Assembly: GCF_963678975.1 (NCBI RefSeq)
Contig: NC_089272.1
Span: 57,854,713 to 57,918,712 of the forward strand
DNA: 64,000 nt
DNA from: Dysidea avara
Taxonomy: Eukaryota; Porifera; Demospongiae; Dictyoceratida; Dysideidae
Direction: 5' to 3'
Notes under the pieces: model-generated
Told to the model about the DNA's origin: nothing
Seen by the model: the letters and a program-made list of their open reading frames with translations, nothing else
Database searches by the model: none
Part shown: positions 27,176 to 64,000 of the stretch, piece by piece
How positions within the stretch are numbered: position 1 is the stretch's first letter
Layout of the letters: each line of letters opens with the position of its first letter
Translations under genes and position numbers: made by a program

Positions 27176-27503
27176 TAATCTAATCCAAAACAGCCAAGCT
27201 GTAAAAAAAGTGTGCGGCCCTCAGAAAGGCTATGGTGAAAAAAGATGTGAAATCCAAGGTGGCGGCCAAGAAATGGCTGTGATGGTAGGTTAATGGTAAA
27301 AATTTTAATAATGACAATTCAGGTAAATTTTGTGAAGCGGCACAAAAATTCACCTGAATTGTCGTTATTAAAATTTTTACCATTAACCTACCATCACAGC
27401 CATTTCTTGGCCGCCACCTTGGATTTCACATCTTTTTTCACCATAGCCTTTCTGAGGGCCGCACACTTTTTTTACAGCTTGGCTGTATTGGATTAGATTT
27501 CAT
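27176..27503. repeat. ~330-bp near-perfect palindrome (foldback repeat)
   Basis: Two ~155-bp arms run from ATCTAATCCAAAACAGCC to an ~11-25-bp centre around GTGAAGCGGCAC and back. The arms contain GGTGGCGGCCAAGAAATGGC and its complement at 27270 and 27405. Because the arms are nearly identical, both strands show almost the same spurious 67-aa frame. A diverged single arm is at 10535-10575. It is probably a MITE-like foldback element. Confidence 0.85.
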
Positions 27504-27639: not shown

Positions 27640-29790
27640 CGGATTTGCGAAAAGGGGCCTTCCACACATCCAATTTGCCAACTTTGACAATTGATAACTT
27701 CAGATTGGAAAGAGCTATTAACTTGAAATTTGGGCAGTGGTGATTTCTTTGCAGCTGAACTCTCTACATGATGGTTTCTTTGTTGCTGAACTCTCTACAA
27801 GGTAATTTCTTCTAGGCTCTAGCTGATCTCTCTACAGGGAGATTTGTTTGTAGCTGAACTATCTACAAGGTAACTTCTTCTAGCTGATCTCTCTACAGGG
27901 TGATTTGTTCGTAGCTGAATTCTGTACAGGTGATTTGTTTGCAGCTGAGCTCTTTACAAAATGGTTTCTTTGTAGCTGAACTCTCTACAAGGTAACTTCT
28001 TCTAACTGATCTTTCTACAGGGTGATTTGTTTGTAGCTGAACTATCTACAAGGTAATTTCTTCTAGCTGATCTCTCTACAGGGTGATTTGTTTGTAGCTG
28101 AATTCTGTACAGGTGATTTGTTTGCAGCTGAGCTCTTTACAGAATGGTTTCTTTGTAGCTGAACTCTCTACAAGGTAACTTTTCTAGCTGATGTCTCTAC
28201 AAGGTGGCTAGTTTGTAGCTGAACTCTCTACATGGTGGATTCTTTGTAACTGAACTTTCTACAAGGTGACTACTTCTAGCTGATCTTTCAATAGGGTGAT
28301 CTGTTTGTAGCTGAACTCTCTACAGGTGATTTGTTTGAAGCTGAACTTTCTAAATGATGGTTTCTTTGTAGCTGAACTCTCTACAAGTTAACTTCTTCTA
28401 GCTGATCTCTTTACAGGGTGATTTGTTTGTAGCTGAATTCTGTACAGGTGATTTGTTTGCAGCTGAGCTCTTTACAGAATGGTTTTTTTGTAGCTGAACT
28501 CTCTAAAAGGTAACTTCTTCTAACTGATCTTCCTACAGGGCAATTTGTTTCTAGCAGAATTTTCTACAGGGTGATTTCTTTGCAGCTGAACTCTCTACAT
28601 GGTGGTTTCTTTGTAGCTGAACTCCCTACAATGTAATTTCTTCTAGCTGATCTCTCTACAGGGAGATTTGTTTGTAGCTGAACTACCTACAAGGTAACTT
28701 CTTCTAGCTGATCTCTGTACAGGGTGATTTGTTCGTAGCTGAATTCTGTACAGGTGATTTGTTTGCAGCTGAGCTCTTTACAAAATGGTTTCTTTGTAGC
28801 TGAACTCTCTACAAGGTAACTTCTTCTAACTGATCTTTCTACAGGGCAATTTGTTTGTGGCAGAATTTTATACAGGGTGATTTCTTTGCAGCTGAACTCT
28901 CTACATGGTGGTTTCTTTGTAGCTGAACTCTCTAAAAGGTAACTTCTTCTAGCTGATCTCTCTACAGGGTGATTTGTTTGTAGCTGAACGATCTACAAGG
29001 TAACTTCTTCTAGCTGATCTCTCTACAGGGTGGATTCTTTGTAGCTGAACTCTCTAAAAGGTAACTTCTTCTAACTGATCTTTCTACAGGGCAATTTGTT
29101 TGTGGCAGAATTTTCTACAGGGTGATTTCTTTGCAGCTGAACTCTCTACATGGTGGTTTCTTTGTAGCTGAACTCCCTACAATGTAATTTCTTCTTGCTG
29201 ATCTCTCTACAGGGAGATTTGTTTGTAGCTGAACTACCTACAAGGTAACTTCTTCTAGCTGATCTCTGTACAGGGTGATTTGTTCGTAGCTGAATTCTGT
29301 ACAGGTGATTTGTTTGCAGCTGAGCTCTTTACAAAATGGTTTCTTTGTAGCTGAACTCTCTACAAGGTAACTTCTTCTAACTGATCTTTCTACAGGGCAA
29401 TTTGTTTGTGGCAGAATTTTATACAGGGTGATTTCTTTGCAGCTGAACTCTCTACATGGTGGTTTCTTTGTAGCTGAACTCTCTAAAAGGTAACTTCTTC
29501 TAGCTGATCTCTCTACAGGGTGATTTGTTTGTAGCTGAACGATCTACAAGGTAACTTCTTCTAGCTGATCTCTCTACAGGGTGGATTCTTTGTAGCTGAA
29601 CTCTCTAAAAGGTAACTTCTTCTAACTGATCTTTCTACAGGGCAATTTGTTTGTGGCAGAATTTTATACAGGGTGATTTCTTTGCAGCTGAACTCTCTAC
29701 ATGGTGGTTTCTTTGTAGCTGAACTCTCTACAAAGTAATTTCTTCTAGCTGATCTCTCTACAGGGTGATTTGTTTGTATTCTCTATAAAT
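27640..29790 (+). repeat. ~27-bp satellite array with ~550-bp higher-order repeat
   Basis: After a TATGTGACCGGATTTGCGAAAA-type lead-in (27630-27740), about 75 degenerate units follow, with the core TTTGTAGCTGAACTCTCTAC alternating with AACTTCTTCTAGCTGATCTC and ACAGGTGATTTGTTTGCAGC. A long stretch starting GTTCGTAGCTGAATTCTG at 28731 repeats at 29282, giving a ~551-bp higher-order unit. Related blocks are at 10570-10880 (same strand) and 60560-61350 (opposite strand). Confidence 0.93.
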
Positions 29791-45334: not shown

Positions 45335-45690
45335 CTGGCCTGTTGTCATTGTAACACATTATTACATCACACAGCCTCCTACCTGTGGTCTCATCTTGCC
45401 TTACAAGATCATTTTCACTACTAGCATCCTGTTGTGTGTTCTCTTGTTGTAACTGCTGTTACCATAACAGCAATCAATATGTATATTACAGAACACAACC
45501 TCTTGTCTTACAAGTTGGTCATTATCTTCACTACATGTAAAATATTTTTCATCACTCTCCTGCTTTGTGGTCTCTTTTTGTCTTGACGTCTGTTACCATT
45601 ACAGTCTGTATTACAACATGTATCACAACCTCTTATTACCTCTTGTATCTTCCTCTTTTCCAAGGTGATCATCATCCAATTCACTTCATC
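45335..45690 (-). repeat. Three diverged ~100-bp tandem units at the 3' end of the NLR gene
   Basis: Shared phrases are CTGTTACCATNACAG, ATTACANCA, CACAACCTCTT and ACAAGNTGGTCAT. The copy nearest the gene is part of its last coding exon. Confidence 0.45.
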
Positions 45691-48600
45691 ATCATTCCGA
45701 TAGTCTTCATCACCCCTTAGTTTACTGAAGACCTTATCATAAATAACAACTTCTTGACAGACTCCTTTGTCCACAGTTGACTGTAGTATCACACAAGCTC
45801 CCTTCACAGTGACGGGATTACCTGACACATCTAATATCTTAACACTATTGTTGACTAGTAATCCTGCTGCAAGTGATTGTGCTCCAGCAAGAGTAATGTC
45901 ACAAACACTAATATACAATTTACTAATCTGACTGTTACTAAGTGCTCCTGCAATGGCGGTGATGCCATCATCGCCAATATTGTTGGCTTTCATCTCAAGG
46001 ACTTGTAGTGAACACTTCACCATGAACACTTCACTGATACAAGTGGCACCTGTAGTGATCATAACAGTAATGATCAAGAAACTATATAAATTAACCACAA
46101 CACAATTTGTTGTAATTCCAAACACTATCAGGCTACCTTTTGCTGTTAATCCACAGAGTGGTACCCTCAACTCAGTCAGAATGTTATGGTATTTGAGTTC
46201 ACTTGATATTAATGACATCCCATCATCACCAATATTAAGATTAACACGAAATTCTAACCTCTTAATGAGGCCCTACCTGTAATTATAACAGTAAAGACAA
46301 TCACACACAGCTCAGTGAAGTGTGGTCAATTCACTAACAGCAATGGTCACTCAGTTTATCAACAGTTAACAGTGGGGGCTTACTTGTTTTCACAATCTTC
46401 ATTATGTTTACCAGCCCATCAATGGTGAGATCATTATTGTACCTGAGGGGTAACACTTCCAGTAGTGCAGCATTGTTGTTGTGGTAATGCTTTGCTAACA
46501 ATTCAGCTTCTTTGTCTCCAATATGACACTCCACCAAGTGCAACTCTGAAACTGGATAACATGACATCACATGGGAGATACACACAATATCGTAAGGTAG
46601 TAAACTGCCCCTTATATCCAATCTGATGGGTGTAACTGGTTGAGGTGGACTAGTTTGTTGACTCTCATACAAACACTTCACTGCTGTTCTACAATCACTG
46701 TATTCTCCAGAAAACACAAACCAGAACATTTCACTAGACACTATTCCTGTTACTCAAAACAAAAATATGAAAACATTAGGATACCCACTAAAGTGTTTAC
46801 TCAGTAGACGTTGCTGTTCTTTTGTTGATAATGTTGAAATATAAACGGTGCACAAGAATTCCTGAATGGTTAAGTGTGAAAAATTGTACATGATAGTCTC
46901 TGTGGGTAACTGGTGAGTGTGTGTAGCTTTGAAAAGACCATACCCATCCCACTCAGCTGTCATCTCTATACTACATTCCTTCAGGTCTGCCACAGTAAAG
47001 ATGATCTTTGGATCCTTCCACTTAGTCCATCCTCTTTCAGAGTACCAGTTAAAGAAACCCCGATAAGCTAATGTACACAATAACAATAATGTCTGCACTG
47101 CTTCTTTGGGAACACTTGTTAACACTTTACTCAATATCTCCTCCGCACTATTAACTGCTGCTACAGTTGAATACATTTGCTTCTTCTTCTTCTTAATTTC
47201 TCTCTCTACTGTCATCAGGGCCGCCCAGAGAAATTAAGGGGCCCAGGGCAAAGAGTTAAAGTGGGGCCCTACACCCAAGTTGTAAGGTGAAGACCAAAAA
47301 AAAAAAAAAAAAAAAAAGGTCATAACCTGCTGGCAATGACAATAACTACCCATCACCAACCATATCTCCTTATCTATAAGCTTGCTACACTGCTCCTCTG
47401 AAGAATACTGTGATTGCTCTATTAGAGTATTTAGATCTGACTGCTCTATTAGAGTATATCGATCTTTTAAACAGGTATTCAGGGGGTCCTTCATGGGGCC
47501 TCCTGGGGCCCCTTTCAGGCTGGGGCCCGGGGCAAAATGCCCCAGTTGCCTCCCCTGTGGGCGGCCCTGACTGTCATCACAATGAATAGTTGGTACAGTT
47601 TTGTAATGGTGGATGGAAGCTTCTTCTCACTACCCTCAAATATTTCAACAATCATCTTTAAATTCATAGGCACATATGACAAACTCTCTAAATGAGGATA
47701 CTCTTTCAACTGCTGTGAAAACTCCTCAACATATTTCACATCATTGGGAAATGACCTCTTCACAAACTTTTGGATTTCTTCTTTACCAAATCCTACTATC
47801 TCTACTCTCCTGCCTGCATCCAGCTTCTCACAAGCATGTGGTCTTGATGTGATCATTATTGTGACTTTCTCCAACAATGTACACTGCTTTACTACACGTA
47901 CTAAAAATGGATCACTCTCTCGATGTTCAGCTGCCATCTCATCCAATCCCTCCAGGATCACTAGACATTTGCTACCTACTGACTCTTTCACTTGCTTGTA
48001 TGTCTCTTCTCCAATGTGCTCCACCATTGCTTCTTCAATTGACCTTTGCTGGACTGACCTTAACGGTATCAAGATCACAATATCAAAGTCCTCAGCTAAA
48101 AACCCATCCCTGTTAGCCCACTTCACACAGATCTCATTGGCAAGAGTCGTCTTGCCTATACCTGCATGCACAACTCATAAAACATCACTACGTACTATCT
48201 ATTCCCTCACCAGGACCTCCCATTACTAGTATCAGTCGAGGACAAGTTTTGTTCTGGTAGTGGAAGATGTCCCTCAGCTCACCAAGTTGTTCTTTCTTCA
48301 ACAATATTTCATCAACTTGTCCTTGTAATGTTAGCCTTGTTATCTCATCCAAGCTCTTATCTGCTCTTGTCACTTGTTCTCCTCTCACTAGAGCCAGTCG
48401 AATATAATAGTGTGGCCAGTCATTGGACAAGTGTCTGAGGTACCTGGCTTGTAACCTTCTAACACCTATTGGATTGTACTTCACTGCAGGACGTTTCAGT
48501 GTTATAGTAGATGAACAGACACATGTAGAGTACAAACAAGAGTTTATAATATGGAACACTAAAGTCTTGGTACAAATGACACAATACTGGCTTCTTACTC

Positions 48601-49263: not shown

Positions 49264-49314
49264 CAGTCATGATGATATGATATGATATGATTACAGGAAA
49301 AAAAAAGGCATAAG
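49264..49314 (-). mobile_element. LINE 3' tail, left side of the large insertion
   Basis: The minus strand reads CTTATGCC, a T-run, CCTGTAATC and then ATATC repeats (tail ATCATATC-like). Together with 58553-58872 it makes a continuous LINE 3' end once 49315-58552 and one CATAAG copy are removed. Short simple-repeat tails are typical of CR1/L2-type LINEs. Confidence 0.65.
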
Positions 49315-49560
49315 TACGGTGGCCGGTTCCGGGAGTTTCTCACTTGTTTCTCAGTTATTTCCGAGAAATTTCTCAGTTATTTCTTAGTTATTTCTCACTT
49401 CTCGGTTATTTTCTCACTTATTTTTCAAATGTTTCCCATTTCTCACTTATTTTCCCGATTATTTCTCACTTCTCAGTTGTTTTCCCAGTTATTTCTCAGT
49501 TACATTTCCCATTTCTCAGTTACCTTCTCAGTTATTTCTTATTTCTCAGTTGGCTTTTCA
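49315..49560 (+). repeat. Left terminal inverted repeat of the 9.2-kb transposon
   Basis: A unique outer ~30 bp (TACGGTGGCCGGTTCCGGGA...) is followed by about 18 variants of TTTCTCAGTTAT/TTTCTCACTT. The same order of variants is found in the right TIR. The first exon of the integrase gene starts ~65 bp further in, so the repeat may serve as promoter (inference). Confidence 0.9.
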
Positions 49561-49624
49561 GTGGTGTTTAGCAGCTACCAGCTACAGTACCAGACGAGAC
49601 TATACGCTGGCAACCTCCGCCTGC

Positions 49625-52452
49625 ATGGCTGTTGCGGACTGTGCAGCTCTTCATCGTTCCGCCTTGAATGAAGATGAATTGATACAGTTTTATTTTAAGA
49701 AAGGATATACATACCAAAATATAAGAAGCTTTCTAGCAGCCAAGCATGGGATTGAGTTAACAGACGACCAGTTAAGGTGGAGACTCAAGAAGCTTGCTTT
49801 GAAGCAGCGGGGAGAGGAAGTTCAGTCTTCCTTAGAAGAAGTACAAGCAGCAGTCGAGGTTAGCTGGCTACTGTGACATGTCACAGTAATGTTATAACTA
49901 ATGTTATAACTAATGTTATATACAGGAGGAACGAAATGAATCAGGAAGGGACCTTGGCTATAGAGTGTTGCATCAGCGTTTACTTCAGAAGCATAAACTA
50001 AGGGTGGGAAGGTTCGTATTACCTGGGCAAAGTCTTACATCATAGATATACTAACTCCAAGTGCCTATATCTATGTTTATACCACGGAGGTGGCACTCCA
50101 ACTACTCTGATAATTGTCCTCGATCAAAGTGAGAAATGTCTTCGGTTTGTCAAAGGACAAAAGACTATTTTTCAGTGTATACTTTAATGTGAATGTATAT
50201 TCACAAAATATACTGGAATTTAGACAAGAAGGCTGATTTGACCGCTTTGTCTGAGGATGAGATTGGAGAATGGTGTATATTGGAGTGCCGCCCTCTTGTT
50301 ACATTCATGCATGTGAGGATGAATGCGAATGCAGTGGAACCTGCCTTAACGGCCACCTCTCTACAAAGCCCACCCTACAATTCCCCAATTGAGTAGTTAG
50401 TGCACTTATCCACCTGTATAAAACAGCCACCTCCCTAGAAATTGTGGTGACCGCTATAGACAGCTTCCACTGCAATTGTTTCATTGTTTTAACCCATCAG
50501 TGTAGTCCAACACCACAAGGCTGCATTGTAGTCAGAGTGCCATTGAGGTTGTACAGATCAGTGGGACAGGAAAAAGCAGCAAGTAGAAGTAGACCAGTAT
50601 CCCTGACTACATGTAAGTCTGACATTGAAATCTGATAGAGTGTTGAGCTTTGAATTGATTTGTCAGTGACAAAAATTTCAATTCTCACATGGGTATTTAC
50701 ATGGACCTGTCATGAAAAAATTAGGTCCCTATTTTAGTTCCCCCAGTCCAAAAATATTGATATATTTGGACTCCACACCCAATAATTGTTTTTGCTCTGT
50801 TTTCAAAACCATAAGGCTTTGTTCAAAAATATTAGATGATTCCTCGACAGATTCTTTGTCCCATATAGTACTCCATAAATTTTACTATTACATGTTTTAG
50901 AGACACTGTCATGATGCTGTCAGCAGTTAATGATCCAGATGGGGCTTTAGAAAGAAAAAAGCATAAATTGAAAAGAAGAGAGTACCACAGCAAGGTAAGT
51001 GAATTTAAATACGTAACTATGTAACGTAATATGCACAATAGTTAAGGGACCAGATTTTATATGGCACACGGATGGGTATGATAAGCTAAAACCGTTTGGA
51101 TTTGCCATTCATGGGTGTATTGACGGGTAAGTTGTACATGTGATTGTGAAGTATGTAAAATTACGTTAAAACAATTCTTATGCAGCTACTCTCGTCGAAT
51201 CTTATGGCTTCATGTTAGTCCATCTAATAATGATCCCTATATTATTGCAGGGTATTATTTGGAGTGTGTCAGAACATTAAAATGTATGAGTCATTAGCTA
51301 CTTGTAAGTATTTAACATGAGTACAGGCTGTCCGACTATTGTCAGATCAGATAGAGGGACAGAAAATTGCAATGTTGCATTTCTTCAGCCTTTTCTACGA
51401 GAGTCCTGTGATGATCAGTTTAGAGGTGAAAAGAGTTTCATGTATGGAAAGTCTACATCAAACCAGGTTAGTTGTACAATAGAACCTGAATTAATTAAGG
51501 TATAAACAAGGGGATTGCTGGTGGTGTTGGGCAAACTAATATTCTTCAAAAGTTTTCCCCTTTGAATTAATGATGATTCACCCCAGGTGATGATGTTGAT
51601 GATTCATCCACCCAACTATTAAAATTGTATGTAATCAGGACACATCTGAAAAGTAGCCTGATTAGGCTGATTCTGTCTTCCCTGAAAAATAGTGTTCTTT
51701 TACACACATTTTGGCTACGTACCAGCTATCATTTTTGCATTGAACATGTACGTGTATAGCTAATGATCCCCAAAAGGAAGTTACTGAGGTAAACATACTT
51801 GAGTGACCATTTGTAATGAACATGGGTTATTTCATTTTTCTGTCATTTTAGTGAATTGAAGCATGGTGGGGGCAGCTACGAAAAAATGGTGCTGGTTGGT
51901 GGATGGATTTTTCAAGGTACACGCACACAACTAATTAAATAATTAATCTATAAAATGTAATAGGAATTAAGGACTAATGGCAAATTGGATGACTCTTGTG
52001 ATATTCAAATGTTCGTTAAACTGATTGAATTTATTTAAAATCTACTTTTAATAGGGACTGTTTACGTTTTTCTTTCATGTCACTGATTCAACAAGAGTTA
52101 ATCATAATAGCAAATGAGTGGAACGTACATACAATAAGGCAGAGTGCACAGAACCCAGGGGGAGTTCCAGATGTTCTGTATTTTCTTCCACATCAAACAG
52201 TTCAGTGACAAATATATTTTAATGATCATGTTTTGTATTATATCTGTTTTAGATTGTCAGTCATACAAGCACCCTATTGACAATGATGACATTGAAGTTG
52301 CTGAAGAATACATCTGCTTGAAACCGGAGCCTACTTCACCTGAGTGTAAGGAATTAGCTGAGCTACTCAATGCCGAAGCTGGAATTAATAGTCCTACTAA
52401 TGCTGACGAGGGACTGGCATTATATAGACATTTAAAGTCAGCAATACTTTGA
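49625..52452 (+). CDS. Integrase-core (DDE/rve-like) recombinase gene, 9 exons, with one nonsense codon
   Basis: Exons: 49625-49858, 49926-50011, 50901-50994, 51047-51126, 51186-51283, 51327-51466, 51852-51916, 52055-~52199, ~52262-52452. Phases agree through exon 8. The N-terminal helix-turn-helix region (ELIQFYFKKGYTYQNIRSFL) is followed by an RNase-H-like core: DFIWHTDGYDKLKPFGF with the first Asp, IVRSDRGTEN with the second, and IEAWWGQLRKNGAGWW with the probable catalytic Glu. A tail GGVPDVLYFLP follows. This matches a family of integrase-core proteins widespread in sponges, cnidarians and fishes (family knowledge). Codon 1 of exon 7 is TGA where the family has Arg, a likely CGA-to-TGA change, so this copy is probably non-functional. 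The last splice junction is uncertain. It ends tail-to-tail with the kinase gene, 54 bp apart. Confidence 0.85.
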
Positions 52453-52859
52453 ATTGAAAGTTGATCTCTTTGAATAATCACAAATACAGTAATAACAGTA
52501 GGCAAGTTAGTTTGATGTCCTGATTAACTGCAAGATTTCAGCCCCAGATGAGCGTTGCTTAGGCTCATATTTTAAGCAGGATTCACATATTTGTTGTACA
52601 TGTTGATCTAAATGGCTGTATGTTGGTAACTTCTTTGTTAATAATTGCATCATTAGCTGGTTGTTGGTCTTGACATTTCTCCAAGCATGTTGCTGGCCAT
52701 ACAATTCTATTAATACGATGCCTAACGACCATATATCTGAAGCTTTTCCAACTACTCCGTCGAAGGTTTCAGGGGCTGCATAGTATGGGGTTCCCACACA
52801 ACGAGCTTCTGTGAGTGTTGAACAACTAAACTTAACCTTTGCCATACCCATATCAGTTA

Positions 52860-53312
52860 GGCCCCTATTTGGTGATTATTAGTTTCTCATCCACCGCCCG
52901 CATCCTTCTTAAGCTACCGCATGGTAAGCCATTATTTACTCTGCGCATACTCAGAAGAACACGTGATACCAAATTGTTATAATTTTTGTTGATGAACGCT
53001 ACAATGTGCTATATATCACCAGGAGAACTGTTGTTTTCCTTAGCAAATTGCTGCAGTGCCAGTTGCAATCGTGCTCTATCGACTTCATCAAAGCAGGCTT
53101 TCAGTTGACTGTCAAAAAACAGTTGGCGATCACGAAAAGTAGAATCAGCTGGTAAAGGAAAATTTGTAGTAAGAAAGAAAGACAATTTGGACAAGGTCTG
53201 TACATCAGTGTGTTAATATTATAAAATAATGGCATAATGGTAATACCCTCCCGCCCACATCATAATAATTAGAAAGGCTGGATGAGAAACTAATAATCAC
53301 CGAATAGGGGCC
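52860..53312. mobile_element. PIF/Harbinger-like MITE in the kinase exon, TTA target, carrying a coding-like insert
   Basis: Inverted ends GGCCCCTATTTGGTGATTAT and ATAATCACCGAATAGGGGCC; TTA on both sides (52857-52859 and 53313-53315). It lies between codons of VYL and TDMG in the kinase activation segment. The interior has CCGCCCGCATCC, and on the minus strand (53194-53009) an open frame with SQLKACFDEVDRARL that has a decayed counterpart in 19015-19454. That shared insert may be a captured host exon. Confidence 0.92.
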
Positions 53313-53780
53313 TTAAGTACACATGAAGTGTACTTTCTTCTACCTGTAACATATGATAACAGCTAGTACATAAATGATATCGTGCAATTCTAACCAGTAC
53401 ATTTGATGGTTTTATATCCCGGTGAATCATTGGAAGGCTCAAAGTATGCATATATGTCAAGGCTTGGGTAATCTGCTCAGCTATGAAGTTCCTGTTACTC
53501 ACAGTTAGCTGCTTTTTCTGCATGCAGAATCATACACAAGTCATTGTGTTAACTAGCTAGCATACTTCAGTGAACAGTAGCTTGTACAAGTCACTCCCAC
53601 GAACATAGTTGGTCACAATTTGAATGCTGTTGTCATCACGCGTGTAACCCATGAAGACTACGATGTTTGGAAGGCGAAGAGCACTATTTGACATAGCATA
53701 ACATCTTGATCACATAAAGCTCAAGTTAATATTACCTTAATGCTTTTTCTTCGTCCATATGGTCCCCATCTGCCCTTTAG

Positions 53781-54181
53781 TAGGACTGGGCGGTATTGGA
53801 GTTTCGTTTCACGATATATCGTGCAGAAATATATCACGATATTACTATTTATCGCGGTTATTAAAGATGACTGCTATATTAGAGTAGCTGACTGCTTTAT
53901 TAGGGTATCTCGATCCTAGCTGACTGTTCTATTAGAGTATCTCGATCTTTGTAAAAAAAAATTGACTAGCTAGTACTAGGTCCTTTTTTGCAGTAGTATC
54001 ACGTGATTATTTGAGGTGCATTATAACAACCTTAAGGGCTTAATAAGCTGTCACAAACACTAAAAATCGTAATAATATCGATATCGTGATATTATCGTTT
54101 CACCGAAATCTACGCGATACAGATATCGTTTAATTGCAATACCGCGGTATTACTATAATAGCGAGAAACCGCCCAGCCCTA
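53781..54181. mobile_element. hAT-type MITE in the kinase gene, 8-bp target duplication CCCTTTAG
   Basis: Ends TAGGACTGGGCGGTATTGGA and CGAGAAACCGCCCAGCCCTA are inverted over ~40 bp, with CCCTTTAG on both sides (53773-53780 and 54182-54189). The interior has the ATATCGTG/CGATATCG blocks typical of this MITE group and three CTCTATTAGAGTATCTCGAT units in a row (53870-53955). Confidence 0.93.
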
Positions 54182-54463
54182 CCCTTTAGTCTAGTTTAAG
54201 TTGCTTGACAGCAACTTCAGTTCCATTTAGATGTGACAAATACACCATCCCAAACCCACCCTCTCCTAATTTTCTCCCAAGTGAGATTTGAGTGCCAGAC
54301 AACAAGAACGGATCTGTGTGCAAGAACATGATTGACTGTCACAGTGATATTAGCATGTGCATCAATGATTACATGCAACAGTTGTACTGGTCAGTTTTCA
54401 CAAGAGGTTTCCATGTTCTCCTCATACCTGTAAGTTTAGTATTGCCAAACAGATAGTCTATTA

Positions 54464-56018
54464 TAGGGTCCGCAATGCGAAAAATCGATATCCCCCAATC
54501 AACTACCTAACTATTGTCATGTGTTAGGCTAAGTGTAACTTGAATAACACCAGCGTGGCAGCCAAGTTTGTCACATTCTTCTGGTAGAGAACAATACAAA
54601 TGTCTTAAAATCACGTGATTTTTCGTTGCAACAGTTCGTAGGGTTCTTCGTATGCCACGATATTCACTCTCAACATTGTTCAAGTAGTCTATCATCAACT
54701 CAAAGTATCAGTGGTTTGATTTTATTGGTCAGTTTCTGGTGGCAGCACAATCTGTGCAGCTTTTTGGCGACAGACAAAATGTTTCTTTCTCTGGAGCACA
54801 GGACAAGCAGAGCAGCAACTGCGCCGTGGGTCAGCAATGACCAGTACTAGGTAAAGTACTTGCATGCGGAGTATGGTTATAATTGAAGCTTGTTAGCCAT
54901 CTGGCTGAGCAATCTATATGCTGAAATTCAGCCATAATGACGCGATTTTTGCAAACAAACACCAGAATGGTTGATACATCAGTGAGACAGTCTCCAACAG
55001 CAAGGATACGAAGCTTATAAACACCTAACAATACGGCTATCTCGCCCAGTAAACGCATAGAGCAATCCAATGCATGAAATAAGCACTCACGTGATCAAAA
55101 TTCAAATCGAGGAAATACCCATGAAATCGCTTTCATCTCTGAATAGAAACCATGTAGTGTGCTCCTTTTGTAAATATTTGTGTTAATTGTTCACTCAGGC
55201 CTGGTCTGGGCCAGTGCAGGTGCGATTTAGGCTGTGATGGCATCATAGGGAGGGTATTAGACTGCTGGGCTAATCGAGATGCTGAACCTAATGCACGCAT
55301 TCGCCAAACTGATTGTCACTTGATTCCAAGTGATTTTAAGGTCATTGGAATATATTATGGTTGTATTTTCCGAGATTTGAATATCGATCACGTGAGTGCC
55401 TATTTCATACATTGGATTGCTCTATGCGTTTACTGGGCGAGATAGCCGTATTGTTAGGTGTTTATAAACTTCGTATCCTTGCTGTTGGAGACTGTCTCAC
55501 TGATGTATCAACCATTCTGGTATTTGTTTGCAAAAACCGCATCATTTTGGCTGAATTTCAGCATATAGATTGCTCAGCCAGATGGCTAACAAGCTTCAAT
55601 TATAACCATACTCCGCATGCAAGTACTTTACCTAGTACTGGTCATTGCTGACCCACAGCGCAGTTGCTGCTCTGCTTGTCCTGTGCTCCAGAGAAAGAAA
55701 CATTTTGTCTGTCGCCAAAAAGCTGCACAGATTGTGCTGCCACCAGAAACTGACCAATAAAATCAAACCACCAATACTTTGAGTTGATGATAGACTACTT
55801 GAACAATGTTGAGAGTGAATATCGTGGCATACGAAGAACCCTACGAACTGCTGCAACGAAAAATCACATGATTTTAAGACATTTGTATTGTTTTCTACCA
55901 GAAGAAAGTGACAAACTTGGCTGCCACGCTGGTGTTATTCAAGTTACACTTAGCCTAACACATGACAATAGTTAGGTAGTTGATTGGAGGATATCGATTT
56001 TTCGTGTTGCGGACCCTA
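54464..56018. mobile_element. 1.55-kb foldback element with ~655-bp inverted arms
   Basis: Arms 54464-~55125 and ~55365-56018 are ~97% identical inverted copies ending TAGGGTCCGCAA, around a ~240-bp unique centre. TCTATTA lies directly on both sides (54457-54463 and 56019-56025). Each arm holds two open frames (MMIDYLNNVESEYRGIRRTL... and MRLLGEIAVLLGVYKLRIL...), pointing outward and preserved in both arms, but I recognise neither. It sits just upstream of the kinase start. Confidence 0.9.
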
Positions 56019-56579
56019 TCTATTATAACAAGCCTGATAACATCCTACTGTGAGAGCAACTGCATACCTACCAACTCGTACTTAAATGCACAAGTACAGT
56101 GTTCTAACCCATGCTGGTTGTCAATGCCAGTTAATTTTAAAACGCCATTTCACATGTCCCCCATTGTGTGATGACCCCAGGATTATGATACTCAATTGCT
56201 GAGTGTGATATCACGTATGCAGAGATGTGATAAGACCATTATTAATACATTGCTTGTTCCTGTCACCTATAGTGCAGCACAAACTGATGTTAATGGGAAA
56301 TAATTAGTTGCACACTAGATTGTTCTAGCTATTTTAGTGTGTGACTGCATTACTAGACTTCAAGGTATGCAGCCTGTTTAACAAGAGTGGAGAAACACCA
56401 ACCACTCAACTAGTACATGTTTATGTACATATAGCTAGTGCATTTACCTTGACAATTGAGTCATACATAATGTATCTTCCTTAAGCAATTGACTCTTTAA
56501 CATAATAGTGCATCCACGTGATCAACATTAATAATAATTATAAAATTTGGTGTGACTATCTATAATCAGATGTGGGCAG

Positions 56580-56901
56580 CAGGGGCGGATCCAGAGTCTG
56601 GAAAGAGGGGGGGCACCTTGCTGAAAAAAAGTTGAAGAGCAAAAAAAAAAAAAAAAAAGGTCACAACAATAATAGCTAGTTATCCTTTACCAAATATATT
56701 ATATCACGTATGTTATGTAAAATAAAATCCTATTTATAGCTTCCTAAGTAAGCTACACTTCCCCATGAACACTGTGACTGCTTTATTAGAGTGATTGGTG
56801 ATTGACTGCTCTATTAGAGTATCTCGATCTTATATACATATTTTTAAGGGAGGGGGGGCACGTGCCCCTGTGCCCCCCCCCCCCCCCTGGATCCGCCCCT
56901 G
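56580..56901. mobile_element. MITE, CAGGGGCGGATCCAG ends, 5-bp target duplication GGCAG
   Basis: Ends CAGGGGCGGATCCAGAGTC and CTGGATCCGCCCCTG; GGCAG on both sides (56575-56579 and 56902-56906). It contains poly-A, the AAAATCCTATTTATAGC block and two TGACTGCTYTATTAGAGT units. It is the reverse-oriented sister of 18512-18822. Confidence 0.9.
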
Positions 56902-56987
56902 GGCAGTGACAGTAAACAAAGAATGAAATAATGATGGCCTAACAGTATCCAGTCAAACAGCAAACTATAGCTACAATATACTAACAT

Positions 56988-58279
56988 TCACAAAATTACA
57001 GCCGCGTTTAGCAGGGATATACCTTTGTTTTTCTTTGTCACTTCTAAGCTTCCTGGAGCGCCTTCACTGACTTCTATGACTAATGGCTGCTTATCACATA
57101 TGTCTGCTGATGAATGATTCATGGAGTCTTTGTTGCTGCCTATGTGTGTAAACTTTTCTGCATTGGAATCTTCTTTCATTACATATTCTTCTTGACCTTT
57201 GTCACACTAAAAGGTGTGCATGCTACCATACTAAAGTGCATACGTAGTTTACCATGTGCACATACCTGAACACAGTAAATTTTAGTTTTTGATGGGTAGT
57301 ATCCATGGACATGGATGTACTGTGCTAAACTCAACGGTTTTCCAGCAATTGAGTTCATAAGTTTACTACCTTGTGGGTCTGCCAAAAAGTATTCATATCT
57401 CTCCTCATCAGTACTGGCATTTGACTCTGCAAAGAATTGTTGCTTTGCCATTCCCACTATCTCTCCATATGTAGCTGCAGGGCGTAGTGAAATAGCAACC
57501 ATTGGACCCAATTCCTTGCATCGTGTCCCACATTGCTTGAGGTCATTAAATTTCATACCCCCATAGAAATCTAAAAGAATAAATACACCATGCAGTGAGT
57601 GGATGTACACCCCATTATGCCTCAGTTATAATTATGATCATTAAAGTGAAATGAATTTCAGGACTGGGTCTTGAAACAATCAGCTCAAGGGCAGGCCAAT
57701 GAGTGGCAGAGGTACAAAATTGGGTGGTAAAAGTGTTGAAAGTTCATTCTATTTTGGGAGCTGGGCATTGTCCAGGAAAATTGCAGCATGAAATTAAAAC
57801 AATCATGCACGCAGCATGGACAATTCACAAGTGCAAACATACCATTATGTATACATATAGACCAGAATCCATATCTAAGCTCATTTGATACATTCAACAC
57901 TTACCTTCATCAAGACAGGGCTACGAGCGGTGGACTTAATCTTACCGCCAACCTTTTTACCAGAACTCAAACTGTCTTGTCGGTTTGCTTTTTGAATCGC
58001 TTTGTATTTCGCTATCAACTCAGCTTTCTTGCTTAATACTCCTACTGCTGTACAAGGAACAACTAATCACCAATTGTCTTCAGAGTAGTTATATACGTAC
58101 CTGTAGCTATCTGCTTCATTTCGAACCGCTGGAACCGTTGCAGCCCCCGTTGCGACTTTCAGTTGTTGACCTCGTTCTCGACTCTCAGATGACCCACCAG
58201 AAGATAGAAACTCTTTGGCTTCTGCATTGGAAAGTTTTCCTGCTTTCACACATTCATAAAGAAATTTTATTTCATCCAT
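56988..58279 (-). CDS. Unidentified transposon-borne gene, 4 exons
   Basis: Exons in order: 58279-58101 (MDEIKFLYECVKAGKLSNAE..., a short helical N-terminus), ~58044-57905 (VLSKKAELIAKYKAIQKAN, Lys-rich, ending SPVLMK), 57570-57266 (FYGGMKFNDLKQCGTRC, MVAISLRPAATYGEIVGMAK, YFLADPQGSKL, HVHGYYPSKTKIYCVQ) and 57206-56988 (acidic tail ending LLNAAVIL). The exon-3 alternation of beta-like strands suggests a ubiquitin-like or PB1-like fold (inference). Splice phases between exons 1/2 and 2/3 do not agree in my reading, so a boundary is wrong or the copy is decayed. The ATG lies ~27 bp inside the right TIR. No function is assigned. Confidence 0.6.
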
Positions 58280-58305
58280 CGTGACACGAGGATTTAATTT
58301 CTCCC

Positions 58306-58552
58306 GCCAATAAGCGCCAAAACCACGTGATCGATTGAGAAGGTAGCTGAGAAATAACTGAGAAGGTAACTGAGAAATGGGAAATGTAACTGAGAAATAA
58401 CTGGGAAAACAACTGAGAAGTGAGAAATAATCGGGAAAATAAGTGAGAAATGGGAAATATTTGAGAAATAAGTGAGAAAATAACCAAGAAGTGAGAAATA
58501 ACTGAGAAATTTCTTGGAAATAAGTGAGAAACTCCCGGAACCGGCCACCGTA
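58306..58552 (-). repeat. Right terminal inverted repeat of the 9.2-kb transposon
   Basis: Reverse complement of 49315-49560 with the same outer 20 bp and the same succession of TTTCTCAGTTA variants, diverging at the inner edge near CGATCACGTGG. Confidence 0.9.
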
Positions 58553-58872
58553 CATAAGCCTGTGAGTCCTGCTCATGTACAAAAAAGAAAATAACCATTA
58601 GATATAATATTATCAAATAAAATCTTAAAGCTATTTACAGAGTTAGTTGACACTACTTCGTTAGGTAGACTACCGGTATTCCAAGCATTTATTGATCTTA
58701 TAGAGAAGAAATTACTTCGAACAGATCTTTGTGCATGTGGCTTGAACAATTTGAGTTTGCGTCATCTTGTTACGCTAGACAATTGTTGGTCAAAAAACAT
58801 TTCAGACTGTAAGCTGACATTGCCATGTAAAATATTCACACCATTAACATATCTGCACGATGTCTTCGGTAA

Positions 58873-60559: not shown

Positions 60560-61350
60560 CTGTAGGGAGTTCAGCTGCAAACAGTTAATCTAATAGACAG
60601 TTCAGCAAGAAGCAAGTCACCCTATAGAGAGTTCAGCTACAAATATATCGCTGTAGTGATTCAGAACATGCATTACAAGCCACACTGAAGAGAGTTCAGC
60701 TATAAACAAGTCATGCACCCCGTAGAGAGTTCAGCTACACTCTCTAGAGAATTCAGCTATAAACAAGTCACTGTGGAGAAAGTTCAGCTGCAAAGAAACT
60801 ACCCTGTAGAGAGTTCATCTATACAAACAAGTTACCCTATAGAGATCAGCTGCAAACAAGTAACCCTGTAGAGAGTTCAGCTACAGACAAGTCATTTTAT
60901 AGTTTATACAATGTTCAGCTACAAGTAAGTCACTCTGAAGAGAATTCAGCTACAAACAAGTCACTCAGTAGTGAGGTTTGCTACAAACAAGTCACCGTGT
61001 AGAGTTCAGCAACCAAAAAACCACCCTGTAAAGAGTTCAGCTATACAAAAAAGTTACTCTGTAGAGAGATCAGCTAGAAACAAGAGAGAGCTCAGCTAGA
61101 AGAAGTCACCCTGTAGAGATCTCAGCTGCAAAAAAACCCTGTAGAGAGATCAACTACAAACAAATCACCCTGCAGAGTGTTCAGCTGTAAATAAAGCACC
61201 CTGTAGGAAGTTCAGGTACAAACAAATCACCCTATATAAAATTCAGCTACAAAAAAAATATCGCTCTGTAGAGAGTTCAGCTACAAAGAAACTATCCTGT
61301 AGAGAGTTCAGCTACAAACAAGTTACCCTACAGTGAGATCAGTTTGAAAC
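60560..61350 (-). repeat. Satellite block, minus orientation of the GTAGCTGAACTCTCTAC family
   Basis: About 28 degenerate units with the core GTAGAGAGTTCAGCTACAAA followed by CAAGTCACCCT, the reverse complement of the unit at 27740-29790. It abuts the 5' LTR of the Copia-type element. Confidence 0.92.
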
Positions 61351-61655: not shown

Positions 61656-61717
61656 TTACCTGGAGTATTAATCACAGAGTGGAGAGTTGATTGGTTGTAT
61701 AAAGTCTGGTAACTGTA

Positions 61718-64000
61718 GTGTTCTTGAGTTTAACAATGGCTGTGACCTCAGACAATAAGTGGGTAATTGATAAGTTGGATGGATCCAACTGGACTACCTG
61801 GAAGTTTCAGATGAAACACTCACTCCTCGCTAAAGGACTCTGGGGGTTGGTAGATGGAACAGAAGTATTGGCAGAGGATGCAAATGCACAGGCTCAAGCC
61901 GAGTTTCAGCAGAAGTCACTGAAGGCATTTTCTACAATTGTCCTGGCAATAGGTTCTCCGCAGTTGTACTTGGTGACGTCTTGTGATAAGCCAAAAGAAG
62001 CATGGGATGCATTAAAGAATCACTTTGAATGTGATACTCTAGCAAATAAGCTCTTTCTCAAGAAACAGTATTTCCGGATGGAAATGAGAGAAGGAACTTC
62101 AATTGAGATGCATCTTAAACACATGAAGGAGTTGACAGATCGTTTGGCAGCTATTGGTGCTCCTATTGCTGAAGAGGATCAAGTAGTAACCTTACTGGGA
62201 AGTCTCCCTAAGAGTTATTCTAGACTTGTAACTGCCCTAGAAGCTAGAGGTGATAACATACCACTCAACTATGTGCAGCAAGCTCTGGTTCGCGAGGAGC
62301 AAAAAATGAATGGGCAAGATATTTCAAGTAATCCTGATATTCAGAGAGGGGATGCAGCTCTAGTGGGAGATTCCAAGAGAAGGTCAAAACCTCGTAAGCC
62401 ACATATGTGACCGAATTTTGGAAAATCACCCATATGGGCGCATTTGACACCAAAAATATTTAAAGAAACAAATCACGAACTTCATAATGCAAATCTACTT
62501 GCTGATGGTTTTAAGCCTTTCTCAATACCTTTAATTACAAGAAAATTCTTGAAATATTTTCAAAACTGTGCACTGCTCTTATTAGCAACCCACCAAACTT
62601 GAAAATTCTAATTATTTCACTTGCGCCCATATGGGTGATTTTCCAAAATTCAGTCACATATATGTTTTGGATGTGGTCAGTCAGGTCACTTTCGAAGAGA
62701 CTGTCCAAAGGCCAGGAAGGGCACATCACACAAAGCAAAGACCGCTGGTGAGAAATCAAGTGCTGACAGTAATAGTGCATATGCAGCATCAAAGGATTTC
62801 CCTCAAAATCACACATGGTTAGTGGATTCAGGTGCTTCAAGCCATATGACCTGGAATAAACAACTGTTAGTAAATTACAAGGAGTTTGAGATTCCAGAAA
62901 AGGTTGGCTTGGAAGATGGATGTACCTTAGATGCACTTGGAGCTGGAGAAGTGCACCTAAAAATGCAATTCAAAAGTGAGTTACACTAAGAAATCCATCA
63001 TGTACAAAGTCCTGTATGTACCACAACTGACTCGTAATCTATTTTCTGTGAGGGCTGCTGCTTATTTTATCCAGTTTGGGAATTCTTGCTGCTGGATTAG
63101 AGATAGTGACGGCAAACTCAATGGAATGGGTACACTAGTTGAAAAACTGTATCAACTTGATTGCGAAACCATTACCTCTGAGCAGGCTTCAGTGTAGCTG
63201 GTGAAGCAGATATTTGGCACTTTAGATTAGGACAGGTAAGCGAACGATGTATCAAGAACATGGCCTACAAAAAGTTAGTAACTGGTATTAGGCTACCAAA
63301 ACATGCCAAGGTGTCATTCTGTGAAGGATGTGTTGCTGGAAAAATGAAACGGAAGCCATTCAAATCAGTGGGAGAAATTCAATCTAAGAGAAAACTCCAG
63401 TTAATTCACAGTGATGTTTTTGGACCAATGCCTACAGATTCAATTGGTGGAAACAAGTATTTTGTTACTTTTTATTGATGATTTTTCACAATGTTGTGCA
63501 GTCTATTTTCTGAAAAGCAAATCTGAAGTACCAGAGAAATTCAAGGAATTTGAAGCCCGTGTTTACAATGATTGTGGTCTGAATATTGGAACATTGAGGA
63601 GTGACAATGGAGGAGAGTATTTGTCTAAAGAATTTAGAGCCTACTTGAAGTCAAAAGGCCAGTTGACAGTGCCACATTCTCCTGAACAGAATGGAGTGGC
63701 AGAGAGAATGAATAGGACTCTCATGGAAATGGCTCATGCGGGATTGCCTGACAAATATTGGACTGAAGCTGTGGATGTAGCTGCTTATATAAGAAATCGT
63801 ACCAGCACTTCGTCCATCAAGGGATATAAGACTCCTTTACAAGTGTGGAGTGGGGAAAAGCCAAATATTGGACACTTGAAGGTATTTGGATACACAGCGT
63901 TTGCTCACATACCTGATACACAGACATAGAAACTGGACAAGAAAGCTGTGAAACTCAGATTCGTTGGGTACAGCATCCAGTCAAAAGGCTACAGATTGCT
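61718..64000 (+). pseudogene. Copia-type gag-pol, decayed, truncated by the window end
   Basis: A gag-like frame (61718-62410; NWTTWKFQMKHSLLAKGLW is typical of Copia gag) is followed, across a MITE, by a CCHC zinc knuckle (CFGCGQSGHFRRDC at ~62665), an aspartic-protease motif WLVDSGASSHMT (~62815), an integrase zinc-binding region (WHFRLGQ, where the second His is Gln; CEGCVAGK), and an integrase core with HSDVFGPM, TLRSDNGGEY and PEQNGVAERMNRTL. Frame changes are seen near 62975, 63190 and 63470, with a stop at ~63927, so no continuous polyprotein is possible. Reverse transcriptase and RNase H would lie beyond the right edge. Pol order protease-integrase-RT is the Copia order. Confidence 0.9.
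62406..62658. mobile_element. Mariner/Tc1-like MITE in the Copia element, TA target
   Basis: Ends TGTGACCGAATTTTGGAAAA and TTTTCCAAAATTCAGTCACA; TA on both sides (62404-62405 and 62659-62660). Inner CACCCATATGGGCGCA is also inverted. It splits the gag frame just before the zinc knuckle; same family as 24464-24718. Confidence 0.92.

What the first reader, a model, noticed from the sequence alone, without database searches (positions are those of the whole stretch)
49315..58552. A 9.2-kb integrase-type DNA transposon carrying a kinase and an unknown gene
Seen: identical 20-bp ends on ~245-bp inverted repeats, an exact 6-bp duplication CATAAG, and three genes wholly inside. The two outer genes start 27-65 bp inside the TIRs and read inward. 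Known: the integrase-core family is widespread in animals; 6-bp duplications occur in Polintons, but their polymerase, ATPase and protease genes are not found here. Inferred: the integrase-core gene is the recombinase and the kinase and unknown gene are passengers or accessory functions. A transposon with multi-exon genes and a kinase would be unusual, and I know of no described superfamily with this set.
Basis: partly seen in the sequence, partly recalled or inferred. Interest (0 to 1): 0.93.

Follow-up and report, generated by a model that had tools for sequence, protein, structure and literature searches.

The report
Sponge transposon carrying its own kinase
This is a two-gene jumping gene of a sponge that encodes a cutting-and-pasting enzyme and, facing it, a protein kinase that has been kept by selection across three branches of the family; a similar layout with a different kind of kinase has been described in fungi.

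Summary
The element at 49315-58552 has long inverted repeats and an exact 6-bp duplication. Of 14 copies with both ends mapped, 10 have an exact 6-bp duplication, each of a different sequence.

The interpretation needs two corrections. First, the 'unknown gene' and the kinase are one gene: an N-terminal domain with a predicted ubiquitin-like fold, then a RAF/CTR1-like kinase. Second, a superfamily with this layout is described: 6-bp duplications, TA..TA ends, a TAYGG..CCRTA motif and an IS3/IS481-like transposase point to IS3EU/GingerRoot. Fungal TET-bearing IS3EU elements carry an alpha-kinase gene opposed to the transposase.

New here: an animal lineage with a conventional protein kinase. 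Transposase and kinase diverged together in three subfamilies (silent sites near saturation; kinase proteins 47-62% identical), so the kinase looks like a selected component, not a passenger. The window copy is broken: a premature stop in the transposase, two insertions in kinase exons. The kinase's substrate is unknown.

The parts
49309..49314 (.). target site duplication CATAAG, left copy
49315..49550 (+). left terminal inverted repeat, TACGGTGGCCGG... then an array of 11-bp TTTCTCAGTTA-like units
49625..52452 (+). transposase gene, about ten exons (approx. 49625-49858, 49926-50011, 50901-50994, 51047-51126, 51186-51283, 51327-51466, 51852-51916, 51964-52010, 52055-~52192, ~52254-52452); PF24764; broken here by a stop at 51852-51854 just before the IEAWW catalytic-Glu motif
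   Evidence: exon limits by eye from splice sites and P0008, not from transcripts
57266..58279 (-). 5' part of the kinase gene (exons 58101-58279, 57905-58047, 57266-57570): a short start region and a ~100-aa domain with a predicted ubiquitin-like fold
57023..57206 (-). linker exon of the kinase gene; its donor phase fits the first kinase exon at 54313
   Evidence: P0001
52507..54313 (-). kinase exons (PF00069/PF07714) with G-loop, AVK, HRD, DMG and APE motifs kept; interrupted by two nested insertions and an in-frame stop near 54186
52860..53312 (.). nested insertion inside a kinase exon (GGCCCCTATT ends), absent from 4 of 4 copies compared
53782..54178 (.). nested insertion (GGGCTGGGCGG ends) inside a kinase exon, absent from 4 of 4 copies compared
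54466..56018 (.). nested element with 653-nt inverted arms in an intron of the kinase gene, absent from 4 of 4 copies compared
56577..56899 (.). nested insertion (AGGGGCGGATCC ends), absent from 4 of 4 copies compared (in C8b the neighbouring stretch is also inverted, so its limits are less sharp there)
58340..58552 (-). right terminal inverted repeat
58553..58558 (.). target site duplication CATAAG, right copy

Best explanation
A cut-and-paste DNA transposon of the IS3EU/GingerRoot type in the sponge Dysidea avara. A DDE (integrase/IS3-like) transposase, with a probable N-terminal helix-turn-helix region, binds the repeat units in the long ends, excises the element and inserts it with a 6-bp duplication. 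Shown: structure, copy number, duplications, gene content and selection. Inferred: the chemistry and the binding, by homology and make-up. Facing the transposase from the other end is a second gene, a conventional protein kinase with an N-terminal domain predicted to have a ubiquitin-like fold. Each gene starts about 60-75 bp inside its repeat, so the two repeats probably supply the same promoter to both genes (inferred). The kinase has been inherited with the transposase through three subfamilies under purifying selection, so it most likely serves the element. Most likely (about 55%) it phosphorylates the transposase or host repair or cell-cycle proteins to time or license transposition, with the ubiquitin-like domain giving target choice (speculative). 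The window copy is a decayed member that could move only if helped by others (inferred).
For: Ends, 6-bp duplications and many copies. Transposase: PF24764 at 2.9e-21; NCBIfam IS3 in 14 of 14 and IS481 in 13 of 14 aligned relatives at E <= 0.01, far below the curated cut-offs where shown; in 12 A/B copies the first D motif aligns in 12, the second in 11, the Glu motif IEAWW in 12. One kinase gene. Same two genes facing each other in 15 of 16 N-domain loci whose DNA was read. Selection: A against B kinase pS 0.79-0.84, pN 0.23-0.33; C against one A and one B copy pS 0.84-0.89, pN 0.325-0.343; transposase A against B pS 0.71-0.84, pN 0.19-0.36. Both gene trees of 12 copies split A from B with support 1.0. 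Kinase genes of C2 and C9a differ by one silent base in 508 codons although their duplications differ (GGAATC, ATTTTC): recent movement. HRD and the DMG/DIG aspartate are found in subfamilies A, B and C.
Against: 4 of 14 copies with both ends have no matching duplication (C12a, C6, C10, Cc6). Three of four B copies read AVT instead of AVK at the ATP-binding lysine, and one of these (C11) also does not align at HRD, so part of subfamily B may not be active. Within subfamilies dN/dS is often 0.3-1 or more, as expected of decaying copies. The codon comparisons rest on tblastn alignments that include some intron codons. For the Dysidea transposase itself the general rve family scores a little better (22.1 bits) than IS481 or IS3 (17.7 and 17.3 bits). 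In the three C copies the first D motif did not align, though the related protein P0009 has it. No Repbase IS3EU sequence was available for a tree. The transposase structure model failed (mean pLDDT 50). There is no evidence on any substrate.
Confidence: 0.82

Rival explanations
1. The kinase is a counter-defence or host-manipulation protein: it changes host signalling, silencing or immunity so that the element is expressed, without acting on transposition itself.
For: Fungal IS3EU elements carry a TET/JBP dioxygenase thought to help them escape methylation (PMC12730594, passages). The sponge copies sit in a CpG-poor genome (observed/expected 0.31 in the first 49 kb of the window, 0.38-0.51 in six copies), which suggests methylation. 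The kinase resembles signalling kinases (CTR1, NEK, IRAK4, RAF among the best PDB matches).
Against: No substrate or silencing link was seen; the same data fit a role in transposition.
Confidence: 0.35
2. The kinase gene is a host gene caught between the ends by chance, a mere passenger.
For: DNA transposons can capture host genes (recalled); kinases are abundant in animal genomes (recalled).
Against: It is in 15 of 16 N-domain loci read, in three subfamilies that split long ago, in the same place and orientation, and under purifying selection.
Confidence: 0.05
3. A Polinton, Ginger or another integrase-bearing element rather than IS3EU.
Against: TA..TA ends and the TAYGG motif; best IS3/IS481 E-values among relatives 2e-9 and 8e-10 against 1e-6 for rve (different library sizes). 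Polymerase-like proteins were not sought with profiles, but no open frame over 180 aa exists in the element.
Confidence: 0.06

Closest known systems
IS3EU/GingerRoot superfamily, in particular the fungal TET-bearing IS3EU families of PMC12730594
   Same: 6-bp duplications, TA..TA ends with TAYGG..CCRTA, repeats over 30 bp, IS3/IS481-like DDE transposase, and a kinase gene opposite in orientation to the transposase
   Different: Here the kinase is a conventional protein kinase (PF00069/PF07714) with an N-terminal domain of predicted ubiquitin-like fold, not an alpha-kinase. No TET/JBP gene was recognised (no TET profile was run). The genes are multi-exon, and the host is an animal.
Styx of Zymoseptoria (PMC10853768, passages)
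   Same: transposase said to share origin with IS3EU, 6-bp duplications, extra genes beside the transposase
   Different: Four ORFs: transposase, GATA- and CCHC-domain proteins, DUF3577 protein; no kinase named in the passages; 36-bp ends; fungal
Other PF24764 elements of the same genome (L042-L045)
   Same: PF24764 transposase, multi-copy
   Different: Single-exon 403- and 454-aa transposases; no significant match to this kinase or N-domain within the 7.5 kb read; element ends not found
RAF/CTR1-type kinases
   Same: kinase-domain similarity; RAF also pairs a ubiquitin-like domain with a kinase (recalled)
   Different: Encoded by a transposon; the N-terminal domain has no Pfam family, and no sequence link to the RAF domain was found

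Membership tests
IS3EU/GingerRoot | target site duplication of 6 bp | tested here: met
   exact in 10 of 14 copies with both ends mapped, incl. the window
IS3EU/GingerRoot | TA..TA termini (fungal ones TAYGG..CCRTA) | tested here: met
   TACGG..CCGTA in the window; a few ends of other copies vary at single bases; definition from PMC10045372 and PMC12730594
IS3EU/GingerRoot | terminal inverted repeats over 30 bp (stated for the fungal families) | tested here: met
   about 210-235 bp, 186 of 212 aligned positions identical in the window
IS3EU/GingerRoot | integrase-like DDE transposase related to IS3/IS481, no HHCC domain, first D 100-300 residues from the start | tested here: met
   NCBIfam IS3 14 of 14, IS481 13 of 14 at E <= 0.01, below curated cut-offs where shown; no zinc-finger family in the Pfam scan at E <= 0.1; first D at about residue 147 of the spliced window protein
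IS3EU/GingerRoot | transposase clusters with Repbase IS3EU and GingerRoot proteins in a tree | not testable with these tools
   no reference IS3EU sequence held; the GingerRoot paper is not in the library under the DOI tried
fungal TET-bearing IS3EU lineage | alpha-kinase gene opposed to the transposase | tested here: not met
   opposed kinase present, but it is PF00069/PF07714. Alpha-kinase PF02816 has 22 matches elsewhere in the genome, none at the copies; nearest of the 107 listed PF24764 matches is about 175 kb away
fungal TET-bearing IS3EU lineage | TET/JBP dioxygenase gene between transposase and kinase genes | tested here: inconclusive
   the two genes meet within about 55 bp in the window and no open frame over 180 aa exists in the element; no TET/JBP profile was run
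Polinton/Maverick | protein-primed polymerase, packaging ATPase and protease genes | tested here: inconclusive
   no open frame over 180 aa in the element; no profile search for these was run
Ginger1/2 | 4-bp duplications (recalled) and, for Ginger1, an HHCC integrase N-terminus | tested here: not met
   6-bp duplications; no HHCC-type family in the Pfam scan

The most novel reading that the evidence does not exclude
Phosphorylation is a general need of IS3EU transposons. In fungi they carry an alpha-kinase and in this sponge a conventional kinase, in the same opposed position, which would mean that kinases were recruited or exchanged at least twice. These transposons would then carry a dedicated signalling enzyme that licenses their own movement or disarms the host, and the ubiquitin-like-domain kinases would form a family spread mainly by transposons.
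Probability: 0.4. Interest if true: 0.82.

Novelty: new variant of a known kind. Interest (0 to 1): 0.62.

Why it matters
Kinases inside cut-and-paste transposons seem hardly documented: the one printed case that my searches found is the alpha-kinase of fungal TET-bearing IS3EU. An animal lineage with a different kinase in the same place, kept by selection over deep divergence, suggests that these transposons need a kinase and makes that testable in a two-gene system. It may also give host genomes a source of ready-made kinase genes with a fused recognition domain: by my count 28 loci in this genome hold the N-domain.

Tried and rejected

Literature: searches, seen as listings (38, 56 and 66 only in part: 20 of 25, 20 of 546, 10 of 10,247), showed no printed animal IS3EU element with a kinase. 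Repbase itself could not be searched. I saw passages of PMC12730594 and PMC10853768, and the abstract, passages and section 3.3 of PMC10045372; other papers only as listings.
Full report
What is there. The window belongs to a 551-Mb genome in 108 contigs. The lengths of its contigs C8, C11 and C12 equal those listed for the contigs of Dysidea avara proteins P0001, P0004 and P0008, so the host is this sponge; the contig listed for P0002 (50,154,164) is close to, but not equal to, C4 (50,152,862). The element runs from 49315 to 58552 and is flanked by CATAAG on both sides. Its ends start TACGGTGGCCGGTTCCGGGAG and continue as an array of 11-bp units (TTTCTCAGTTA and variants); 186 of 212 aligned positions of the two repeats are identical.

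It is a mobile family. The left end has 42 matches in the genome (58 candidates, 40 scored). I read 13 further loci. With the window that makes 14, of which 11 show both ends and 8 of the 11 an exact 6-bp duplication: CATAAG, ATTTTC, GGAATC, AAAACC, AATATC, GTTAAC, CTTTTT and ATCCCT. C12a, C6 and C10 do not match; C4a, C4b and C5b lack one mapped end. Three more single ends had no partner in the 8-10 kb read. Three copies of a third subfamily have similar ends and 2 of 3 have exact duplications (GATTTA, ATCTAC; Cc6 does not). In total 10 of 14 copies with both ends are exact. Copies C2 and C9a have kinase genes that differ by one silent base in 508 codons but different duplications, so the family moved recently.

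Gene content. On the plus strand lies a transposase gene of about ten exons with the PF24764 integrase core (E 2.9e-21). Its relatives match the IS3 and IS481 transposase models (14 of 14 and 13 of 14 at E <= 0.01, best 2.4e-9 and 7.7e-10), well below those models' curated cut-offs where shown; for the Dysidea protein P0008 the general rve family scores slightly higher. On the minus strand the exons of the 'unknown gene' end in the phase in which the first kinase exon begins, and a Dysidea protein of 508 aa joins them, 84% identical over the 313-aa query. So there are two genes, facing each other. Of the 20 loci of this family that I read (14, three, three), 15 hold N-domain, kinase and transposase; C4b holds the N-domain only, in the 10 kb read; L039 only the first transposase exon; C5b, L040 and L041 none. 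The C12a locus also holds part of a second, diverged element, not counted. A genome search with the N-domain alone gives 34 matches at 28 loci by my count: 9 of subfamily A, 4 of B and 15 of C-like divergence; of the 15, three were read, with transposase exon pieces up to 97% identical to P0009.

The kinase is an old and selected part. Between subfamilies A and B the kinase gene has pS 0.79-0.84 (near saturation) but pN only 0.23-0.33; the transposase has pS 0.71-0.84 and pN 0.19-0.36. Three C copies against one A and one B copy give pS 0.84-0.89 and pN 0.325-0.343 for the kinase. These comparisons use tblastn alignments and include some intron codons, which would raise pN rather than lower it. 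Both gene trees of 12 copies separate A from B with support 1.0. HRD and the DMG (or DIG) aspartate are present in A, B and C. The lysine of AVK is kept in A (except the decayed C5a), in the three C copies, and in 1 of 4 B copies; C11 does not align at HRD. A passenger would not be expected to show this pattern. Within subfamilies dN/dS is often 0.3-1 or more, as in decaying copies.

State of the window copy. Against four sister copies the window alone carries insertions at 52860-53312, 53782-54178, 54466-56018 and 56577-56899; the first two lie in kinase exons. The transposase has a stop directly before the IEAWW motif, as do C9a and C4a; 5 other A copies have arginine there. Seven other full-length copies have no stop in the aligned kinase codons, frameshifts not excluded. 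The window copy is therefore a decayed member.

What it is. IS3EU elements have TA..TA ends and usually 6-bp duplications, and their transposases are near those of GingerRoot and IS481EU, with IS3/IS481-like bacterial relatives (PMC10045372, passages and section 3.3). Fungal TET-bearing IS3EU families end in TAYGG..CCRTA, and all of them hold a TET/JBP gene between a transposase and an alpha-kinase gene in opposite orientations (PMC12730594, passages). The sponge element matches in ends, duplication, transposase type and in having an opposed kinase gene, but its kinase is of the conventional family; no alpha-kinase match lies at these copies or within 170 kb of any of the 107 listed PF24764 matches (150 of 226 PF24764 candidates scored). 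I could not place the transposase in a tree with Repbase proteins, so membership is strong by structure and provisional by phylogeny.

How it works. Excision and insertion by the DDE transposase follow from homology and from the duplications. That the repeats bind the transposase through their repeated units and serve as promoters of both genes is inferred from their make-up and from the start codons lying about 60-75 bp inside. The kinase's role is open. I favour control of transposition through phosphorylation of the transposase or of host repair or cell-cycle factors, over manipulation of host silencing or defence. A kinase in the same position in fungi supports a need for kinase activity, but the two kinases may have been acquired separately for separate reasons.

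Novelty. A new variant of a known kind: an IS3EU-type element with a conventional kinase in an animal. That no such animal element is in print rests on the listings of searches of an open-access library and not on Repbase.

Noticed in passing
window 45508-48174 (-): Open frames that look like a NACHT-NTPase/LRR immune receptor (GxGKT motif by eye), about 1.1 kb from the transposon.
   Followed up: no
window 61703-63929 (+): Copia-like gag and integrase open frames (by eye), about 3 kb right of the element.
   Followed up: no
window 54463-56019: A 1.56-kb nested element with 653-nt arms, 97% complementary, and an apparent 8-bp duplication (by eye); absent from the four sister copies compared.
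   Followed up: partly
window 27739-29778 and 60675-61318: Long arrays of a ~31-bp repeat (AGCTGAACTCTCTACAAGGTGATTT-like; second array on the other strand) at two places about 31 kb apart.
   Followed up: no
window 27177-27499: Near-perfect palindrome with 155-nt arms, 98% complementary.
   Followed up: no
L042 1063-1695 (-): An unassigned 210-aa frame beside, and divergent from, a different PF24764 transposase, in a locus with a 99%-identical copy (L043); perhaps the second gene of another IS3EU family. No Pfam match for its main part.
   Followed up: partly
G000 whole genome: PF24764 transposases are abundant in this sponge: 107 matches (150 of 226 candidates scored), 17 of them in open frames of 400-500 aa without a stop; a reservoir of IS3EU-like families.
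   Followed up: partly
G000:C10:25805731-25855399 and C2:20568050-20971243: Clusters of alpha-kinase (PF02816) matches, with no listed PF24764 match within 170 kb.
   Followed up: no
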